Below, in pieces: positions 10,404-18,759 of a DNA stretch of 36,765 bases (positions are counted from its first letter, which is position 1; every line of letters begins with the position of its first letter). The stretch covers positions 1 to 36,765 of the forward strand of contig PMNE01000075.1 of the NCBI GenBank assembly GCA_003162635.1, given 5' to 3'. The notes under the pieces are model-generated. The model saw only the letters and a program-made list of their open reading frames with translations, was not told the DNA's origin and did not search any database. Origin of the DNA: Ignavibacteriota bacterium (GTDB taxonomy: Bacteria; Bacteroidota; Ignavibacteria; UBA10030; UBA6906). Both the position numbers and the translations under genes were made by a program.

Positions 10404-12980
10404 TCAGCGAACAACAATGTTGACAAGTTTGTTTTTCACCACAATCGCCTTGACGACCTGCTTGCCATCGATATGCCTTTTCACGCCGTCGTCCGCCAGG
10501 GCCATCGCCTCGAGATCCTTTTCGGCAAGATCAACCGGGGCAGTGAGCTTCCCCCGGACCTTGCCGTTCACCTGAAATACGATTTCCGTGATTTCCTGGC
10601 GGAGTTTTGTCGCGTCATAGGAGGGCCATGGCTCGTACGCGAGAGATGTGGCATGTCCGAGCTTTTCCCAAAGTTCTTCCGCGATATGGGGGGCAAAGGG
10701 AGAAAGGAGGAGGATAAACGGCTCCAGGAGCTGCCTCGGCCGCTTTTCCGCCTTCATCACCTCGTTGACAAAAATCATCATCTGGGAGATTGCGGTATTG
10801 AAGTGAAGCCCCTCGACATCATCTCCAACCTTCTTTATCGTAAAATGATAAAGCGTTTCTAATTCAGAAGTTACAGGAATCGTCTGAATTGCAGGATCGA
10901 TGTTCCCTTCGTCTGTCATATAGAGCCGCCAGACGCGGTTGAGGAATCGGGACACACCCTCGACACCCCTCGTGCTCCATGGCTTCATCTCTTCCAAAGG
11001 CCCCATAAACATCTCAAAAAGGCGGAGAGAGTCGGCACCGTACTCCGCCACCACATCGTCCGGATTGACTACATTGCCACGCGACTTTGACATCTTCCGT
11101 GAATCCTCGCCAAGGATGATCCCCTGGTGGCGGAGCTTCAGGAACGGCTCCCTGGTGCTCACGTGCCCAAGGTCATAGAGCACCTTGTGCCAGAAGCGGG
11201 CGTACATGAGATGAAGGACGGCGTGTTCCGCCCCGCCGACGTACAGATCGACGGGCATCCACGCCTTCTCCAGCTCCGGGTCACAGAATTGCTTTTCATT
11301 CTTCGGGTCAAGGTACCGCAGGTAGTACCAGCACGAACCCGCCCACTGGGGCATGGTGTTCGTCTCGCGCCGGCCCATCCGTCCCTCTCCATCCTTCACG
11401 TTCACCCATTCCCCGGCGAGAGCAAGGGGGGACTCTGTTGTGCCGCTCGGCTGGAATTTCTTGAGATCCGGAAGAAGCAGCGGCAGTTGATCCTCCGGCA
11501 CGGCTTCCATCGTTCCATCGTCATAATGGATGATGGGGATCGGTTCGCCCCAGTAACGCTGCCGTGAAAAGAGCCAGTCACGGAGCTTGTACTGAACGGT
11601 CGCCGCGCCGATGCGTTTTTCCTCCAGCCAGCGGACGATCTTCTCCTTTGCCGCTTCCGTGGGGAGTCCATCGAGGCAAATTTCCGCGTTGGCCGAGTTC
11701 ATCGCTGTTCCTTCGCCGGTGAACGCATCGACAGTAAGATCGCCTCCCCGGACCACGGGAACAATCGGGAGGTTGAATTTCCTGGCGAAGGCATAATCGC
11801 GCGCGTCATGCCCGGGAACGGCCATGATCGCCCCTGTGCCGTATCCCATCAGAACATAATCCGCAATCCAGACGGGAATGTCGCGTCCTGTCGCGGGGTT
11901 CGTCACGCACCCGCCGGTCCATACGCCGGTCTTCTCCGTCTCGATCCCCCTCTCCATGTCGCTTTTCCCCGCCGCCTCCTTCTTGTATTCTTCGACGGCC
12001 TCCTTCTGCGAGGGAACGGTCATCCGCGGGACCAGCGGATGTTCCGGAGCAAGAACCATGTAGGTAGCCCCGAAGAGCGTATCCGGTCTCGTGGTAAAGA
12101 CGCGCATCTTCTCGTCGATCGCACTGCACCGGAAATCGATCTCCGCCCCTTCGGAGCGGCCGATCCAATTCCGCTGCTGTTCCAGCGTCGACGGCGGCCA
12201 GTCCAGGTCCTTTGCATCTTCCAGCAGGCGTTCCGCGTAAGCCGTGATACGCATCATCCACTGTTTCATCGGGCGCCGTTCGACCGTATATCCTTTATCG
12301 GCCCATTCGGCCACCTCCTCGTTTGCCAGCACGGTCCCCAGCCCTTCGCACCAGTTCACCGGAATCTCGGCAACGAACGCCAGGCGAAACGCCGCGAGAA
12401 TTTCCTGTTGTCGCAGCTTCGACATCCTCCCCCATTCATCGGCGGAGAACGCCGGGAGAGATGAAAATCGCCGCGACCCGTTTGTCGCGAACTCGGCACT
12501 CAGGTCCCCGATAGGCCGCGCGCGCCGCATTTCCCGGTCGTACCACGAGCCATACATTTTGAGGAAGATCCACTGTGTCCATTTGTAGTATCCCGGATCC
12601 GTGGTATCGACCTCGCGCGACCAATCGTAGCTCAGGCCGAGCATTTTAATCTGGCGGCGAAACGTCGCGATATTGTCGGCTGTGGTGATGCGCGGGTGAA
12701 TATTCGTCTGCATCGCATACCGTTCCGCTGGCAATCCGAAAGCGTCCCATCCGATCGGATGGAGCACATTGAAGCCCTTCATCCTCCTGTAGCGGGAGAA
12801 GATGTCCGTCGCCGTGTATCCTTCGGGATGGCCGACATGCAGTCCGGCACCGGACGGGTAAGGATACATATCAAGGATATAAGCTTTCGGTTTCCCGGGA
12901 GTGAATCTCGTCAGGAACGTTTGGTGCATGTCCCAGTAGTCCTGCCACTTCCGCTCAATTGCTAAAAAGGGATACGCCAT
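10404..12980 (-). CDS. leuS: Leucyl-tRNA synthetase
   Basis: An 858-residue class I synthetase that charges tRNA-Leu. HIGH-type motif HVGH is at residues 48-51 in [16 protein letters not shown], and KMSKS is at 629-633 ([12 protein letters not shown]). The CP1 editing region has [14 protein letters not shown]. About residues 148-205 (SWYD to AEIPVNWC) hold an insertion relative to the E. coli enzyme, a form I associate with Bacteroidota LeuRS. The start at 12980 ([15 protein letters not shown] follows Met) aligns with family N-termini; an 82-residue in-frame upstream extension is unlike LeuRS and overlaps the recombinase gene. It lies 85 bases after the recombinase and four before a GT2 gene, an odd setting for a synthetase. 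Confidence 0.97.
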
Positions 12981-13065: not shown

Positions 13066-13983
13066 CTACCCTGTTCGTTGATCCTCAGAGCGTGGAAGGT
13101 ATAACCGCGCCGTCGCCAGACTCCCCAGGCGGAGGTGTTCCCGAATCGCATCCGCCGATGCGCCCGTGCCCGCAAGGAAACGGGCGGCCGTATGGCGGAG
13201 GGAATACGGAGTAACGTGGCGTCCATCCGCCCCCTCGATTCCAGTCCGCCGGAGGTAAAGCATAACCCGGTCCCTGACTCCCCGCGTCGTCATTCTCTTT
13301 CCCCGGGTCCTGTTCCCGGCGCTGGTAAAGAGCGGCTCGGCCGATCCGGAGGCGGGACGGGCGAGGAGGTAGTCCTCCAGCGATCCACACACATCCTCCG
13401 GTACCCTGACTGTCTGGTCCTTCTTCGTTCGTCCCTTCCCCTGAACAGCGAGGAACGCTCCCTCCTCATTCCGCGTGAGATCGCCGATATTCGCCCGGAT
13501 GATCTCTATCTCAGAGAGAGCGCATCCCAGCATGAGCTTCATGAACGCGAAGTCCCTTTTCCCCCGTTCGTCCCCTCTGCCGACAGAAGCGAGCAACGCG
13601 CCAACCTGCTCAGGCGAGAGAAAAGCGCGCGTATGAAGACGCGGCCTGCTGTTCCCGCGGACCTCGAGGGCGGCGTTGCGCGCAATCGTCCCCCGATGGG
13701 CAAGGTATTCGCCGAAGCGCCGGAGCGCCGTCAGATACGTGGAGACCGAGACAGGCGAGAGTTTCCTGCCGGCCGCAAGGTATCGTTTGTACTGCACGAT
13801 TTCCTGCAGGGTGAAATCCGTTCCCCCGCGCCGGCCGGCCCATCGGAGGAATTCCCGCAAGGCCCGCTCATACGTCCCTCGCGTCTCGGGTCTTCTCCTC
13901 TTCAGACTCCGCAGAAATCCCTTCTGGTCTCTCGCGAGAGAAGCCGGGGAAAGATGCCGTCGTGTATGGGCGCCGTGTGCCAT
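13066..13983 (-). CDS. Degenerate XerC/D-like tyrosine recombinase
   Basis: A 305-residue two-domain protein: an N-terminal SAM-like DNA-binding domain (about residues 15-110) and a C-terminal phage-integrase domain (about 120-300). Compared with XerD, the catalytic Lys (K183, GKGRTKK), second Arg (R263 in SLRHT) and Tyr nucleophile (Y295) are kept. The first catalytic Arg is Ala155 (GCALSE instead of GLRxSE), the HxxR His is Tyr260 and the third His is Leu286. Three of six catalytic residues are therefore substituted, so normal strand exchange is doubtful. The ATG at 13983 lies just after a TTG-N20-TAAATT promoter; an in-frame TTG at 14082 would overlap the SpoIIE gene. No att sites or inverted repeats surround it. 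It is followed by leuS. Confidence 0.85.
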
Positions 13984-13995
13984 GTCTGCAATAAC

Positions 13996-14026
13996 AGAAT
14001 TTACCCTTTTTGCGTCAGGAAAGCAA
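13996..14026 (-). promoter_or_regulatory. Promoter of the recombinase-leuS operon, TTG-N20-TAAATTCT
   Basis: On the minus strand TTG at 14026-14024 is followed after 20 bases by TAAATTCT (14003-13996). It sits in the gap between the SpoIIE stop (14066) and the recombinase ATG (13983). Only about 12 bases separate the -7 box from the ATG, so the leader would be very short. It may drive the whole run down to nadK. Confidence 0.65.
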
Positions 14027-14065: not shown

Positions 14066-15823
14066 TCAGCGGATTTTGACAACCATCATGGTGATATCAT
14101 CCGACTGGGGGGCGCCGCTGGTATGGAGGGCGACGTCATCATGGATCGCCCGGACGACGGATGGCGCGTCCTCCCCATGGACGCGGTGCAGGACCCGTTC
14201 GAGGCGCTCTTCCCCATACTCCTGTTGCTGCGCGTTCATGGCCTCGCTGACACCGTCGGTGAAGAGGACAAGCATATCCCCTCCCCTCAGCGAAATAACC
14301 CCCTCTTCATACGCAACCGGAGTTTTCATCACCCCGAGGATCATCCCCCCTTTTTCCAGCCGCCCGCTTGTGCCGTCGTCGTGGATGACATACGGATAGT
14401 TGTGTCCCGCGTTGACATAGGTGAGAGTCATGTCCCGGTGATTGATGGCGCCCCAGAAAAACGTGACGAACTTGTCTCCGCCCGTGTTCTCGCACATCAG
14501 GTCGTTCACCCTGCCGGTGAGCTCGCCGAGACTGAGTCCAAGGGGAACCAGCGCGCGGATGGTCGCCTGCAGGTTGGCCATCAGGAGCGCCGCCGGCGAC
14601 CCCTTTCCCGAGACATCACCGATCGCAATGATGTGGCGTCCATCACTCGTCCTCAGAACATCGTAGTAATCCCCCCCCACCTGTTTCGACGAGACGTTCG
14701 TTGCGCTGATCTGAAACCCGGGAATCTCGGGGATCACGCTCGGGAGCAGTCCCTTCTGGATCTCGCGCGCGATGAGCAACTCGTCCTCGAGCTTCTGCTT
14801 CTCGATTGCTTCCTTGAACAGGCGGGCATTTTCCAGGGAAATGATCGCAAGGTTACCGAGCGATGCAACGAACTCGAGGTCCCCCTCGCTGAACTGTTCC
14901 CGGCTGAGCTTGTCGCCGAGCAGCAGCAATCCCCGCGCCTCTCCCTTCAGTTCGATCGGAACCAGGACCGACAGCGTCAGCGAATCCAGCACGGGGCGCG
15001 GATCGACCGGTCCCCTGACAACAAGATCTTTGGTGAAGGTCGGACCTTTGATTCGTGCAAGGAGGGAAAGGAGTTCCCCTTGCGGCGGCGGTCCGTCGAT
15101 CTTCGAGGCCACGACATTCATGTCAGGACCGTTCTTCACGCAGATCACATAACGCCGGACACCGATCTGGCCAAGGAGTGAAAAGACGAGAAGTCGCACA
15201 AGCTTCTCGGGATCAAGTAACGCGCTGAACTCCCTCCCCAGCTCCGACAGGGTGCCCAATTCCTGCACCCGCCTGTCAAGATTCCGATTGACGCGTTGCA
15301 GCTCGCCGATCATCTGCGACTTCTCGATGGCAGTGGCGGAGATGTTCGCCAGCGAACGCAGGTACGTGATCTCCCTGGCATGGAGTTTCTTGCGGGCCAG
15401 CCGTTCACCAAATCCCAGGAAGCCGATGGTCCTTTCCGCGATCACCAGCGGCAGGACGATCGTCACCCCCTCGTCCTGGAGACTTCGCACCCATGGATGC
15501 TTTTTCCCGTCCAAGGAAGAGACGGCGAATGAACCGGCAGGCAGCGATCGGATGGTCCATTGTGTGCCGCGGAGAGCTGAGGGAAATCCCTTGACGGTTT
15601 CGACCCCGTAACTATTCCCGTCCCGCCTCAGGGCAACGAGGCCGCGCGTCGAGAGGATCTTCCCCATGATCGTCAGGAGAATATGGCTCAGGATGAAGTC
15701 GAGCTCCAACGAGGAGTTGATGACCTTGCTGAATTCGAAGAGGGCGGCGTGATCAAAGTGGCTGCTCTCTGCGTCGTCGCCCTGCGCGGCGGGTCCTGTG
15801 TGTCGGCGTTGCTGCCTGGGCAT
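14066..15823 (-). CDS. Cytosolic GAF-domain SpoIIE/RsbU-type PP2C phosphatase
   Basis: A 585-residue protein without membrane segments. A first GAF-like domain spans about residues 25-170 and a second about 190-340, joined by a helix, followed by a linker helix (QKLEDELLIAREIQKGLLP) and a SpoIIE-type PP2C domain. Metal-binding landmarks are GGDYYD at 383-388, AIGDVSGKG, LFTDGVSEA and the terminal SDDITMMVV. Such phosphatases dephosphorylate STAS antagonists and so release sigma factors. The GAF domains probably sense a cytosolic ligand or partner. Met at 15823 is chosen because it follows the HATPase stop by 13 bases; the frame stays open upstream into that gene. It is the last gene of the partner-switching cluster. 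Confidence 0.92.
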   Translation of the reverse strand: MPRQQRRHTGPAAQGDDAESSHFDHAALFEFSKVINSSLELDFILSHILLTIMGKILSTRGLVALRRDGNSYGVETVKGFPSALRGTQWTIRSLPAGSFAVSSLDGKKHPWVRSLQDEGVTIVLPLVIAERTIGFLGFGERLARKKLHAREITYLRSLANISATAIEKSQMIGELQRVNRNLDRRVQELGTLSELGREFSALLDPEKLVRLLVFSLLGQIGVRRYVICVKNGPDMNVVASKIDGPPPQGELLSLLARIKGPTFTKDLVVRGPVDPRPVLDSLTLSVLVPIELKGEARGLLLLGDKLSREQFSEGDLEFVASLGNLAIISLENARLFKEAIEKQKLEDELLIAREIQKGLLPSVIPEIPGFQISATNVSSKQVGGDYYDVLRTSDGRHIIAIGDVSGKGSPAALLMANLQATIRALVPLGLSLGELTGRVNDLMCENTGGDKFVTFFWGAINHRDMTLTYVNAGHNYPYVIHDDGTSGRLEKGGMILGVMKTPVAYEEGVISLRGGDMLVLFTDGVSEAMNAQQQEYGEERLERVLHRVHGEDAPSVVRAIHDDVALHTSGAPQSDDITMMVVKIR

Positions 15824-15836
15824 GACGAAGGGAAGC

Positions 15837-16253
15837 CTATGGGAGGTACTTGGTAAGGCGGACTTCGTTGAGTTTTCCCGGTGCAATGTCGAACTCAACC
15901 TTATCCATCAGCGACTTCATGAGGTAGACGCCGAGCCCGCCGCGGCGGTAGTGGGAAAGATATTCCTTCATATCGGGGCTATGAAGACGCGCAGGGTTGA
16001 ATTGGTTGCCGGAATCCCGAATGACGACCTGAAATGCGCGTTTCTCGGCCGCGACGGCGACCTTGATGGTCTTCTTCGGGTCGAACTGGTACGCATGCTT
16101 GATGATATTCGTGCATGCCTCATCGACCGCCAGCGCTATCTTGCTGACGTCTTCGTCGTTGAATCCGAACGAGCGCGCGGCCGCGGAAACAAACTCCCGC
16201 ACGGCGATCAACCGTTCGGTCCGGCTCTCAATTTGTATGCTGCCGTCTTTCAC
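15837..16253 (-). CDS. RsbW/SpoIIAB-like anti-sigma HATPase (serine kinase)
   Basis: A 138-residue GHKL-fold protein. The N-box is ALAVDEACTNIIKHAY (about 41-56), G1 is IRDSGNQFNP, and the glycine-rich lid is RRGGLGVYLMKSLMD. No histidine-kinase phosphoacceptor domain is present, so it belongs to the anti-sigma kinase family that binds a sigma factor and phosphorylates the STAS antagonist. It starts 3 bases after the STAS gene and precedes the cytosolic phosphatase. No sigma factor gene is found in the window, so the target may be encoded elsewhere or may not be a sigma factor. Confidence 0.92.
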   Translation of the reverse strand: MKDGSIQIESRTERLIAVREFVSAAARSFGFNDEDVSKIALAVDEACTNIIKHAYQFDPKKTIKVAVAAEKRAFQVVIRDSGNQFNPARLHSPDMKEYLSHYRRGGLGVYLMKSLMDKVEFDIAPGKLNEVRLTKYLP

Positions 16254-16256
16254 AGT

Positions 16257-16613
16257 TCACTTCGGCTTGTCAAAGAATCGGTTGATCGCTTCGTTTTCTT
16301 CCTTGAATATTTCGTACAGGAGCGGAAATCCAAGCAGGTCGAACACGTTGTACACCTTCGGCGACATGTTCGTCAGCTTGATGTCCCCCATGTTCTGCCG
16401 CACGTCCTCGATGAACGCCATGAACACGCCAAGACCGGCGCTGCTGATATAGGACAAATCCTTGCAGTTCACCACGATCTTGAAATGCTGGCTTGCGATG
16501 AGGTTCTGGAATGCCTCCTCGAGTTTCGGGGCAGTGTGGGCATCCAGATAGCCCTTCAATGCCAGAACGTTGACGTTCTCCTGCTCGCGGCTTGCGATCT
16601 TGAAGTCACTCAT
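16257..16613 (-). CDS. STAS-domain anti-sigma factor antagonist (RsbV/SpoIIAA-like)
   Basis: A 118-residue single STAS domain. The conserved phosphorylation loop DLSYISSAGLGVF places the phosphoacceptor Ser at 57 or 58 (aligned with Ser58 of SpoIIAA). In its unphosphorylated form such a protein captures the HATPase and frees its partner. The start overlaps the upstream membrane phosphatase by 8 bases and the next gene begins 3 bases downstream, so the order phosphatase-STAS-HATPase-phosphatase is translationally tight. The C-terminal extension (about residues 95-118, FDLLGFPLLYEIFKEENEA) is a common variant. Confidence 0.93.
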   Translation of the reverse strand: MSDFKIASREQENVNVLALKGYLDAHTAPKLEEAFQNLIASQHFKIVVNCKDLSYISSAGLGVFMAFIEDVRQNMGDIKLTNMSPKVYNVFDLLGFPLLYEIFKEENEAINRFFDKPK

Positions 16614-18759
16614 TGATTCTCCTTCGGTTTCGTATCGCGCGATCCTCGCGTGGATCTGATCCCTTCCATTTCACAATCACCAATGTCACATCGTCGTCGT
16701 TGGCGCGGTGGTTTGTAAAGTCGCTGACCGTGGACAGGATGGCGTCCTTGATTTCCGCGGCGGTTCGATCCCGCACATTCCTGGTTGTCTCCAACAGGCG
16801 TTCATAGCCAAACTCATCCTCCTCCCTGCGCGCCTCCGTGAGGCCGTCGGTGTAGAGCACACAGACATCGCCTTCCTGCAGGTCGAACGACTCCTCTTCG
16901 ATTGCATTCTCGAAGATCGAACCGCTGCGCAACCCCATCCCAAGTCCGTTGGGGCGGACGTACGTCGCCCGATCGCCGCTGACCCGCAACAGGGGACAAT
17001 GCCCCGCCCGGGCGACCGTCACGCGCCCCTTCTCCAGCTCGAACATTGCATAAATAACGCTAACGAATGAGTGTTTGTCAATAGAGCAGACCAGCGCCTC
17101 GTTTGCATGGGTAAGGAATTCCTTCGGGGAATGATACATGCGGCCGAGGGCCTGGAAGATTCCCTTCATTTCCGACATGTAGAAGGCAGCGGACACGCCC
17201 TTTCCCGAGACGTCGCCGACAATGACCCCGACCCTGCCGTCGCCAAAATCCACAAAGTCGTAGTAGTCTCCCCCCACTTCGAAGGCAGGCGTGGAGATCG
17301 CATCGATGTCCAGACTGGAATGGGACGGAAGGAACTGCGGCAGGAGCCGCTTCTGCATTTCCTGGGCAACGAGCATCTCGCGAAAGAGGCGTTCCCGCTC
17401 GATCGATTCCCGGATAAGACGCGAATTCTCGATGGCAACGGTCGCCTGATCCGCAAATGCAGAAATGACATCGACGTCATCCTTCACGAACCCGAACGCC
17501 TCCTTCTTTGTCGCGTAGAGAATCCCCGCGAGTCCCGCATGGGAGATCAGGGGGACCACGACGAGGGAACCTGCAACGTCTTTGTGATGCCTCCAGACGG
17601 GAAATCGCGGGTCCCCCTCAATCTTATCCACGAGCAGCGGCTTGCTCCCGCGTATGACGTCGTTCCGGACGTTCTCCCCTCCCGGGGGAACGAGGAGCTC
17701 GATCTGCTCGCGCGTGATATTCTTCATCCCCGCAATCCGTACCTGATGACCCGCAAGCACCTCCGAACCCGCGGTCACGGGCTGATCCTTCGACACCGGG
17801 AATACTTCCAGCCAGCAACGCGAAGCCCCGACGACTTCGAGCGTCATGGCGGTCACCGTATCGACCAGTTCATTAAAGTCGAACACCTGCGTCACGAGCC
17901 TGCTCAGCGAATGCAGCGATGACACCTCCGACCGCTTGCGATCGAATGCTTCTGCGGTCGGCAGGTGGAAGAGAGTGCTGACAAAGGCAAGGCCGGCATA
18001 GATCGTGACGCACACCGAGATGAGGAGGACAAACTCCCGCAACGGATACGAATAATAGAGGAGCGAACGGCCGACAAGCGTGTTCCCCCCCACCACGACA
18101 TCGAGAATGACAAACAGGACGAAGAGGAAAAAGCCGTAGAGGAGGCCGAAGATCTTCTCCTTCTTTGTCAGGCCGACGATCCAGGGAAGCCGGAAGGAAT
18201 TCACGATCGCAACGATCAACGCCAGCCCAAAGAGAATCCCCGTCGCCACACGGGAGTCGAGCGGACGGAGCCACGCCGTCGAGAGTGCGGTCGCAAGGAT
18301 CAATCCGACGAGCACCCCGAAGTTCCTCCTGACGGAGGGTTTTCTGTTCATCAGGATCATGTCGCGCATCAGGAGGAAGACGGCAATCCCAAAGAGACCG
18401 AAAACGAGCGAAACAAGCGATCCGAGGAACAGGGTGAGATAGTCGAGCGGAACGAGCGACAGGCTTTTCGAATCAAACCCGGCAAGGTCGAGGGCACTGT
18501 AGATCGCGCACACCAGAAGGAGCACGCCGGCACCCACGAGGGCAAGTCCGAGCTTTCTGACCGGTGAAATCTCATTCCGGACCGGTGTCGCCTTGAGAAG
18601 GAGATACACGAGCGCGAAGGCGCCGATGGCCGCGATCTCCCGTATCACGGGAAGCCCGCCAAAATCAAGCTCGACGTTCTTCCCGATCAGGTCGATCGTG
18701 AACTTCACGAGCACCAGGAAAAACGCCCCGGCCAGATAGAGAATCCTGCGCACTTTCAT
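16606..18759 (-). CDS. Membrane-bound GAF-SpoIIE phosphatase (signal input of the partner switch)
   Basis: A 717-residue protein. The first 270 or so residues hold about seven to eight hydrophobic segments (for example near 8-25, 40-57, 68-92, 105-130, 150-165, 173-192, 203-225, 240-262) with no recognised sensor motif. A helix leads to a GAF domain (about 290-460), then a SpoIIE PP2C domain with GGDYYD at 496-501, GDVSGKG, LYTDGLTEA and DDVTLVIV. It probably links a membrane or envelope cue to dephosphorylation of the STAS protein encoded directly downstream with an 8-base overlap. It differs from the cytosolic phosphatase at 14066-15823 in its whole sensor half, so the module has two inputs. 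Confidence 0.92.
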   Translation of the reverse strand: MKVRRILYLAGAFFLVLVKFTIDLIGKNVELDFGGLPVIREIAAIGAFALVYLLLKATPVRNEISPVRKLGLALVGAGVLLLVCAIYSALDLAGFDSKSLSLVPLDYLTLFLGSLVSLVFGLFGIAVFLLMRDMILMNRKPSVRRNFGVLVGLILATALSTAWLRPLDSRVATGILFGLALIVAIVNSFRLPWIVGLTKKEKIFGLLYGFFLFVLFVILDVVVGGNTLVGRSLLYYSYPLREFVLLISVCVTIYAGLAFVSTLFHLPTAEAFDRKRSEVSSLHSLSRLVTQVFDFNELVDTVTAMTLEVVGASRCWLEVFPVSKDQPVTAGSEVLAGHQVRIAGMKNITREQIELLVPPGGENVRNDVIRGSKPLLVDKIEGDPRFPVWRHHKDVAGSLVVVPLISHAGLAGILYATKKEAFGFVKDDVDVISAFADQATVAIENSRLIRESIERERLFREMLVAQEMQKRLLPQFLPSHSSLDIDAISTPAFEVGGDYYDFVDFGDGRVGVIVGDVSGKGVSAAFYMSEMKGIFQALGRMYHSPKEFLTHANEALVCSIDKHSFVSVIYAMFELEKGRVTVARAGHCPLLRVSGDRATYVRPNGLGMGLRSGSIFENAIEEESFDLQEGDVCVLYTDGLTEARREEDEFGYERLLETTRNVRDRTAAEIKDAILSTVSDFTNHRANDDDVTLVIVKWKGSDPREDRAIRNRRRINE

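What the first reader, a model, noticed from the sequence alone, without database searches (positions are those of the whole stretch)
13066..13983. Tyrosine recombinase lacking three of six catalytic residues
Tyr295, Lys183 and Arg263 remain, but the first Arg is Ala155, the HxxR His is Tyr260 and the third His is Leu286. The reading frame is intact and well folded by motif, so this is not a decaying pseudogene. A noncatalytic or altered-activity Xer-like protein could act as a DNA-binding regulator. It is encoded ahead of leuS with its own promoter.
Basis: partly seen in the sequence, partly recalled or inferred. Interest (0 to 1): 0.65.

Follow-up and report, generated by a model that had tools for sequence, protein, structure and literature searches.

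The report
Conserved dead recombinase with its own operator
A gene annotated as a DNA-cutting recombinase belongs to an ancient single-copy bacterial family in which no sampled member has the full set of cutting residues, yet the protein is under strong selection and many copies carry the same short, promoter-overlapping DNA word just upstream, so it most likely works as a DNA-binding regulator rather than a recombinase.

Summary
The gene is real: minus strand 13066-13983, 305 aa, intact, tyrosine-recombinase fold. Orthologues share the pattern. Of 97 homologues extracted from across the phylum, none has both catalytic arginines, none has all six residues, and two keep none. They form one clade (SH-aLRT 99) beside intact plasmid-type integrases, evolve at dN/dS 0.01-0.21, and sit in stable housekeeping contexts (before leuS-glycosyltransferase-msbA in four families). 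The window's genome has intact XerC and XerD. New here: a promoter TTGC-N17-TANNTT abuts CTGTTATTG upstream of the gene. CYGTTATTG lies within 200 bp upstream of 38/97 members (background 0.4%). TAANTTCTGTTATTG occurs once per gene copy and nowhere else in nine of ten relatives' genomes. The word inverts or shifts but stays on the promoter, as an operator would. Best reading: a domesticated, non-catalytic integrase acting as an autoregulated DNA-binding protein, like phage repressor MrpR but host-encoded and phylum-wide. DNA binding and autoregulation are inferred. In Rhodothermus-like genomes lacking canonical XerC/D it could instead partner an intact recombinase.

The parts
13066..13983 (-). 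Degenerate tyrosine-recombinase-like gene (305 aa), here called recL for convenience
   Evidence: AlphaFold2 pLDDT 86.8; fold matches XerH, XerA, Tn1549 Int, Cre, MrpR
13513..13515 (-). Ser157 codon: column of catalytic Arg I
   Evidence: alignments
13435..13437 (-). Lys183 codon: catalytic Lys column, kept (90 of 97)
13204..13206 (-). Tyr260 codon: His-II column (family: F/H/Y/L/D/N/Q)
13195..13197 (-). Arg263 codon: Arg-II column, kept here; Thr in nearly all of the large Rhodothermus/Salinibacter-side branch
13126..13128 (-). Leu286 codon: His-III column (family: I/L or H)
13099..13101 (-). Tyr295 codon: nucleophile column, kept here (87 of 97)
13273..13323 (-). Residues 221-237 [17 protein letters not shown]: most conserved block of the nearest orthologues, with R225 nearly family-specific, R234 and R237 near-invariant; inferred DNA-recognition segment
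   Evidence: role inferred from the position of the recognition helix in related recombinases
13989..13997 (-). CTGTTATTG, operator-like word conserved upstream of the gene
13998..14003 (-). TAAATT, -10 box of the conserved promoter
14021..14026 (-). TTGCTT, -35 box of the conserved promoter (spacer 17)
10404..12980 (-). leuS, immediately downstream, probably co-transcribed in many relatives
14066..15898 (-). GAF-SpoIIE (PP2C-type) phosphatase gene upstream; its stop lies 82 nt before the recL start

Best explanation
The gene encodes a host-domesticated tyrosine recombinase that has lost strand-exchange chemistry and survives as a sequence-specific DNA-binding protein. It keeps the two-domain C-clamp fold and the basic recognition segment, but no sampled member keeps both catalytic arginines. 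It most likely binds the CYGTTATTG word that overlaps its own promoter and represses its own transcription, and with it leuS where the two genes share a transcript. Shown here: fold, conserved catalytic losses, one clade, purifying selection, stable single-copy chromosomal position, and a conserved promoter/operator-like architecture. Inferred: DNA binding, that this protein binds that word, and repression.
For: (1) 0 of 97 homologues have both Arg I and Arg II; 0 have all six residues; different lineages lost different ones (Ignavibacteria-side SKFRIY/SKYRLY, Rhodothermus/Salinibacter-side SKHTHY, others TTFKIV, NAGRPF, SEQSPN), so chemistry is not what is conserved. (2) One clade, SH-aLRT 99, next to intact plasmid-type integrases. 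(3) dN/dS 0.01-0.21 in pairs of measurable divergence. (4) Same chromosomal neighbours across genera and families, one copy per genome as a rule. Members next to leuS in family f12 have lost Tyr too but stay in place. (5) CYGTTATTG within 200 bp upstream of 38/97 vs 0.0041 expected per window. In 17 genomes it directly follows TTGC-N17-TANNTT; in 5 it is inverted at the same spot; in others it lies in or near the spacer or on the -35. (6) TAANTTCTGTTATTG is found once per recL copy (two in the genome with two copies) and nowhere else in 9 of 10 genomes, none in the tenth. (7) Precedent: MrpR of SPbeta has this fold, lacks most catalytic residues, does not recombine and is a repressor (PMC10516654; fold match Z 14.2). 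(8) The window's genome has separate intact XerC and XerD.
Against: No binding or expression data. Lys (90/97) and Tyr (87/97) remain common, which pure DNA binding need not require, although MrpR also keeps both and needs its Tyr for DNA binding. The word is absent upstream of 59 members (none in 24 sampled members of other class families, none in f20), so it is not universal. It is short, not clearly palindromic, and could be bound by another protein. The count is not corrected for shared ancestry.
Confidence: 0.6

Rival explanations
1. Altered-activity recombinase: the protein still cleaves DNA with Lys and Tyr, another arginine replacing Arg I, as in the CTnDOT integrase.
For: Lys and Tyr are kept in about 90%. 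In the CTnDOT integrase a missing Arg I is functionally replaced by a downstream Arg (PMC8138268). R225 is conserved in 91/97 members and mostly Asn in intact relatives. The conserved word near the gene could be a cleavage site.
Against: The Rhodothermus/Salinibacter side also lacks Arg II, so two replacements would be needed; f12, f21, f54 members lack the Tyr but remain conserved. Most other conserved arginines (R143, R209, R285) are also in intact relatives. The word sits on the promoter in shifting positions and both orientations.
Confidence: 0.15
2. Non-catalytic partner: it pairs with an intact tyrosine recombinase, as one half of a Xer-like heterotetramer.
For: Rhodothermus-like genome G394 has only two tyrosine recombinases, this one (SKHTHY) and an intact one; no match near canonical XerC/D score is found there.
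Against: In the window's genome XerC and XerD are both present and intact, and other class members have two strong XerC/D-level matches. The conserved word is at the gene's own promoter and no second, dif-like intergenic copy was seen in the genomes tested.
Confidence: 0.15
3. Decaying former integrase, drifting without function.
For: Catalytic residues are lost and some branches are long.
Against: Strong purifying selection, intact frames across a phylum, conserved synteny and promoter.
Confidence: 0.03

Closest known systems
MrpR (YopR), master repressor of Bacillus prophage SPbeta (8A0A; PMC10516654)
   Same: Tyrosine-recombinase fold; crucial Arg/His replaced (Ser, Val, Asn) while Lys and Tyr stay; DNA-binding repressor without recombination activity
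   Different: Prophage-encoded, far in sequence (11% over the structural alignment); ours is chromosomal, vertically inherited and phylum-wide; binding not shown
SroF of phage phi3T (9RD5, 9RGL; PDB titles only)
   Same: Fold match to the model, described as a repressor bound to DNA
   Different: Phage protein; no paper held
IntCTnDOT subgroup integrases
   Same: Arg I missing in some members
   Different: Active, arm-binding domain, alternative Arg; ours are two-domain and many also lack Arg II or His (PMC8138268)
IntDes subgroup of Desulfovibrio
   Same: First His replaced by Tyr, Arg shifted; function unknown (PMC8138268)
   Different: Arm-binding domain, other phylum
Plasmid tyrosine recombinases of lactic acid bacteria (pSMQ308, pLRI05)
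   Same: Among the closest intact relatives found in plasmid and phage records, 33% identity, same VQGKG and RMTTR-type segments
   Different: Full RKHRHY set
XerC/XerD
   Same: Domain plan and fold
   Different: NCBIfam XerC 94.8 bits vs cut-off 335; catalytic set missing

Membership tests
Tyrosine recombinase superfamily (fold) | SAM-like core-binding domain plus Phage_integrase catalytic domain | tested here: met
   Pfam above cut-off; model matches XerH Z 20.3, XerA, Cre
Tyrosine recombinase (catalytic) | Arg-Lys-His-Arg-His/Trp plus Tyr | tested here: not met
   Ser157, Tyr260, Leu286 in the window protein; no complete set in 97 homologues
XerC/XerD | Score above NCBIfam equivalog cut-off | tested here: not met
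   94.8 vs 335 and 83.1 vs 330 bits; XerC/D-like proteins of related genomes score 268-330 and also fall just below the cut-off, so the strict cut-off alone is weak evidence
XerC/XerD | Acts at dif in chromosome dimer resolution | not testable with these tools
   A separate intact pair exists in the genome
IntCTnDOT | N-terminal arm-binding domain | tested here: not met
   Only core-binding and catalytic domains in 305 aa
MrpR-like recombinase-fold repressor | Fold with catalytic Arg/His lost | tested here: met
MrpR-like recombinase-fold repressor | Binds operator DNA and represses transcription | not testable with these tools
   Only a conserved operator-like word
MrpR-like recombinase-fold repressor | Common descent with MrpR closer than with other recombinases | not tested
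   MrpR was not placed in the tree

The most novel reading that the evidence does not exclude
An undescribed, ancient, host-domesticated family of catalytically dead tyrosine recombinases serves as a vertically inherited, autoregulated DNA-binding regulator across Ignavibacteria, Chloroherpeton-like and Rhodothermus/Salinibacter lineages, with its own promoter as main or only high-affinity site.
Probability: 0.45. Interest if true: 0.75.

Novelty: new variant of a known kind. Interest (0 to 1): 0.6.

Why it matters
Recombinase-fold repressors are known only from a few phages as far as the held literature shows. A phylum-wide chromosomal family would show that integrases can be domesticated into core regulators, would explain why some 'XerC/D' or 'integrase' annotations in these bacteria mislead, and gives a natural series of active-site losses for studying which recombinase parts serve DNA binding alone. 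It also raises the question of how Rhodothermus-type genomes without canonical XerC/D resolve dimers.

Tried and rejected
Arg I at Ala155: rejected by alignment. R163 (EIEIIRA) as a replacement arginine: also present in intact plasmid relatives and only about half conserved in the family. A leuS-specific role: recL is next to leuS in four families only. A dif-like site: the word is single and promoter-bound in the genomes tested; other CCGTTATTGAC hits that I looked at in Rhodothermia lie mostly inside long ORFs. Sigma-70 scan found no promoter; footprinting did. The IntDOT primary paper is not held; no paper on SroF or on a RaiA-recombinase fusion was found. Structural placement of R225 in the active site was not possible, as model coordinates are not readable here. 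In one search the printed window-residue letters are mis-indexed; its column numbers and consensus letters are right. Negative control: TANNTTCYGTTATTG in 16 recL-less relatives was absent from 14; the four hits in two genomes are of the CC form and were not examined.

Full report
OBSERVATION. The ORF lies on the minus strand, 13066-13983, 305 codons from ATG. Pfam gives Phage_integrase (60 bits) and two SAM-like N-terminal families. NCBIfam XerC and XerD score 95 and 83 bits, far under their cut-offs of 335 and 330. AlphaFold2 with 11 window/locus sequences gives pLDDT 86.8, pTM 0.65, and the model matches XerH, XerA, Tn1549 integrase, Cre and, lower, the repressors MrpR and SroF.

CATALYTIC COLUMNS. 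In alignments with E. coli XerD and the genome's own XerC and XerD, the window protein has Ser157, Lys183, Tyr260, Arg263, Leu286, Tyr295 for Arg I, Lys, His II, Arg II, His III, Tyr.

ORTHOLOGUES. All near relatives share the pattern. Profile searches found a strong match in 96 of 391 sampled genomes of the class and 86 of 395 of the phylum; a few of these are intact outgroup integrases. Of 97 members extracted, Arg-I column: S 78, T 8, A 4, K 2, one each H, Q, G, R, N; the single R lacks Arg II. None has both arginines, none the full set; two keep none of the six. The phylum splits: Ignavibacteria-side F/Y at His II and I/L at His III; Rhodothermus/Salinibacter-side keeps both His but has Thr at Arg II. 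Some members also lost Tyr, among them f12 members that still sit directly before leuS. The organism names are inferences: near orthologues in named records are Ignavibacteriae/Bacteroidetes MAGs, and replicon lengths 3,261,604, 3,551,823 and 3,293,456 match, from memory, Rhodothermus marinus, Salinibacter ruber and Chloroherpeton thalassium.

ORIGIN. A quick maximum-likelihood tree without the six columns puts all members in one clade (SH-aLRT 99), next to intact integrases of lactic-acid-bacteria plasmids and intact recombinases of the phylum. Best plasmid matches are about 33% identical and fully catalytic. I infer domestication of a mobile-element recombinase in an ancestor of these lineages.

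SELECTION AND CONTEXT. dN/dS is 0.01-0.21 in pairs with measurable dS. In families f1, f5, f12 and f20 the order is recL-leuS-glycosyltransferase-msbA; in many Rhodothermia it lies between a dihydrolipoamide-acyltransferase-like gene and a porin-like/secA side. So position is stable within lineages but the leuS link is not universal. The window's genome holds intact XerC beside topA and intact XerD.

PROMOTER AND OPERATOR-LIKE WORD. The generic scan found no promoter. Aligning upstream regions shows TTGCTT (14026-14021), 17 bp, TAAATT (14003-13998), then CTGTTATTG (13997-13989) and the ATG at 13983. Seventeen genomes have the word at offset 0 from the -10 box; five have it inverted (ATAACGG) 1-2 nt from the -10 box; L127 and f8 members carry it inverted near the spacer; in Rhodothermia CCGTTATTGAC overlaps a -35 TTGAC. 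CYGTTATTG occurs within 200 bp upstream of 38/97 members against 23 occurrences in 1.13 Mb of background (relatedness not corrected, but several lineages contribute). TAANTTCTGTTATTG occurs ten times in ten genomes: once per recL copy in nine genomes, hence twice in the genome with two copies, and not at all in one genome (G017) whose -10 reads TAGTTT. CCGTTATTGAC occurs in all eleven Rhodothermia genomes tested, but in two of them (G430, G527) only elsewhere, their recL copies having a one-letter variant. A word that keeps its place on one gene's promoter while flipping and shifting looks like a protein-binding site rather than a promoter element.

MECHANISM. The most conserved segment of near orthologues is [15 protein letters not shown]; across the family R225 (91/97, mostly Asn in intact relatives), R234 and R237 stand out. 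By analogy with related recombinases this lies at the major-groove recognition helix (established knowledge, not tested here). I propose that the protein clamps the word as a monomer or pair and blocks RNA polymerase. MrpR shows that such a protein can be a repressor that keeps Lys and Tyr, the Tyr being needed for binding.

ALTERNATIVES. Altered catalysis is possible in single lineages but must explain loss of both arginines or of Tyr in others. A partner role is open for Rhodothermus-like genomes: G394 has only this protein and one intact tyrosine recombinase, and no canonical XerC/D-level match.

VERDICT. Not an artefact and not a plain Xer protein; a new variant of a known kind, with DNA binding and autoregulation still to be shown.

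Noticed in passing
L210/L211 (G398 C1:1553135-1553650, G394 C1:1603827-1604342): Rhodothermus-like genomes lack matches near canonical XerC/XerD score; G394 holds only two tyrosine recombinases, the degenerate one and one intact plasmid-type one that may serve as its Xer.
   Followed up: partly
PDB 9i5v chain 14: A solved chain named RaiA (ribosome-associated translation inhibitor), 401 aa, contains a tyrosine-recombinase domain, apparently a recombinase-RaiA fusion.
   Followed up: no
L045 and L035 (genome G005): One relative carries two copies of the gene, each next to leuS-like sequence and each with its own upstream word.
   Followed up: partly
L004 (G000 C108:112810-112998): Truncated integrase fragment with a stop in the window's genome.
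   Followed up: no
L172 and L174 in the window's genome: Two further TTCCGTTATTGC words lie close before long plus-strand ORFs (L172 between divergent genes, one glycosyltransferase-like): possible further targets.
   Followed up: partly
window 14066-15898 and 16606-18759: Two tandem GAF-SpoIIE phosphatase genes; relatives have anti-sigma-factor-antagonist-like and kinase-like small genes between them: a partner-switching cluster upstream.
   Followed up: no
L206, L208, L209 (G027) and L207 (G022): recL-less relatives: G027 has three TAAATTCCGTTATTG words and G022 one TATCTTCCGTTATTG word; context not examined.
   Followed up: no
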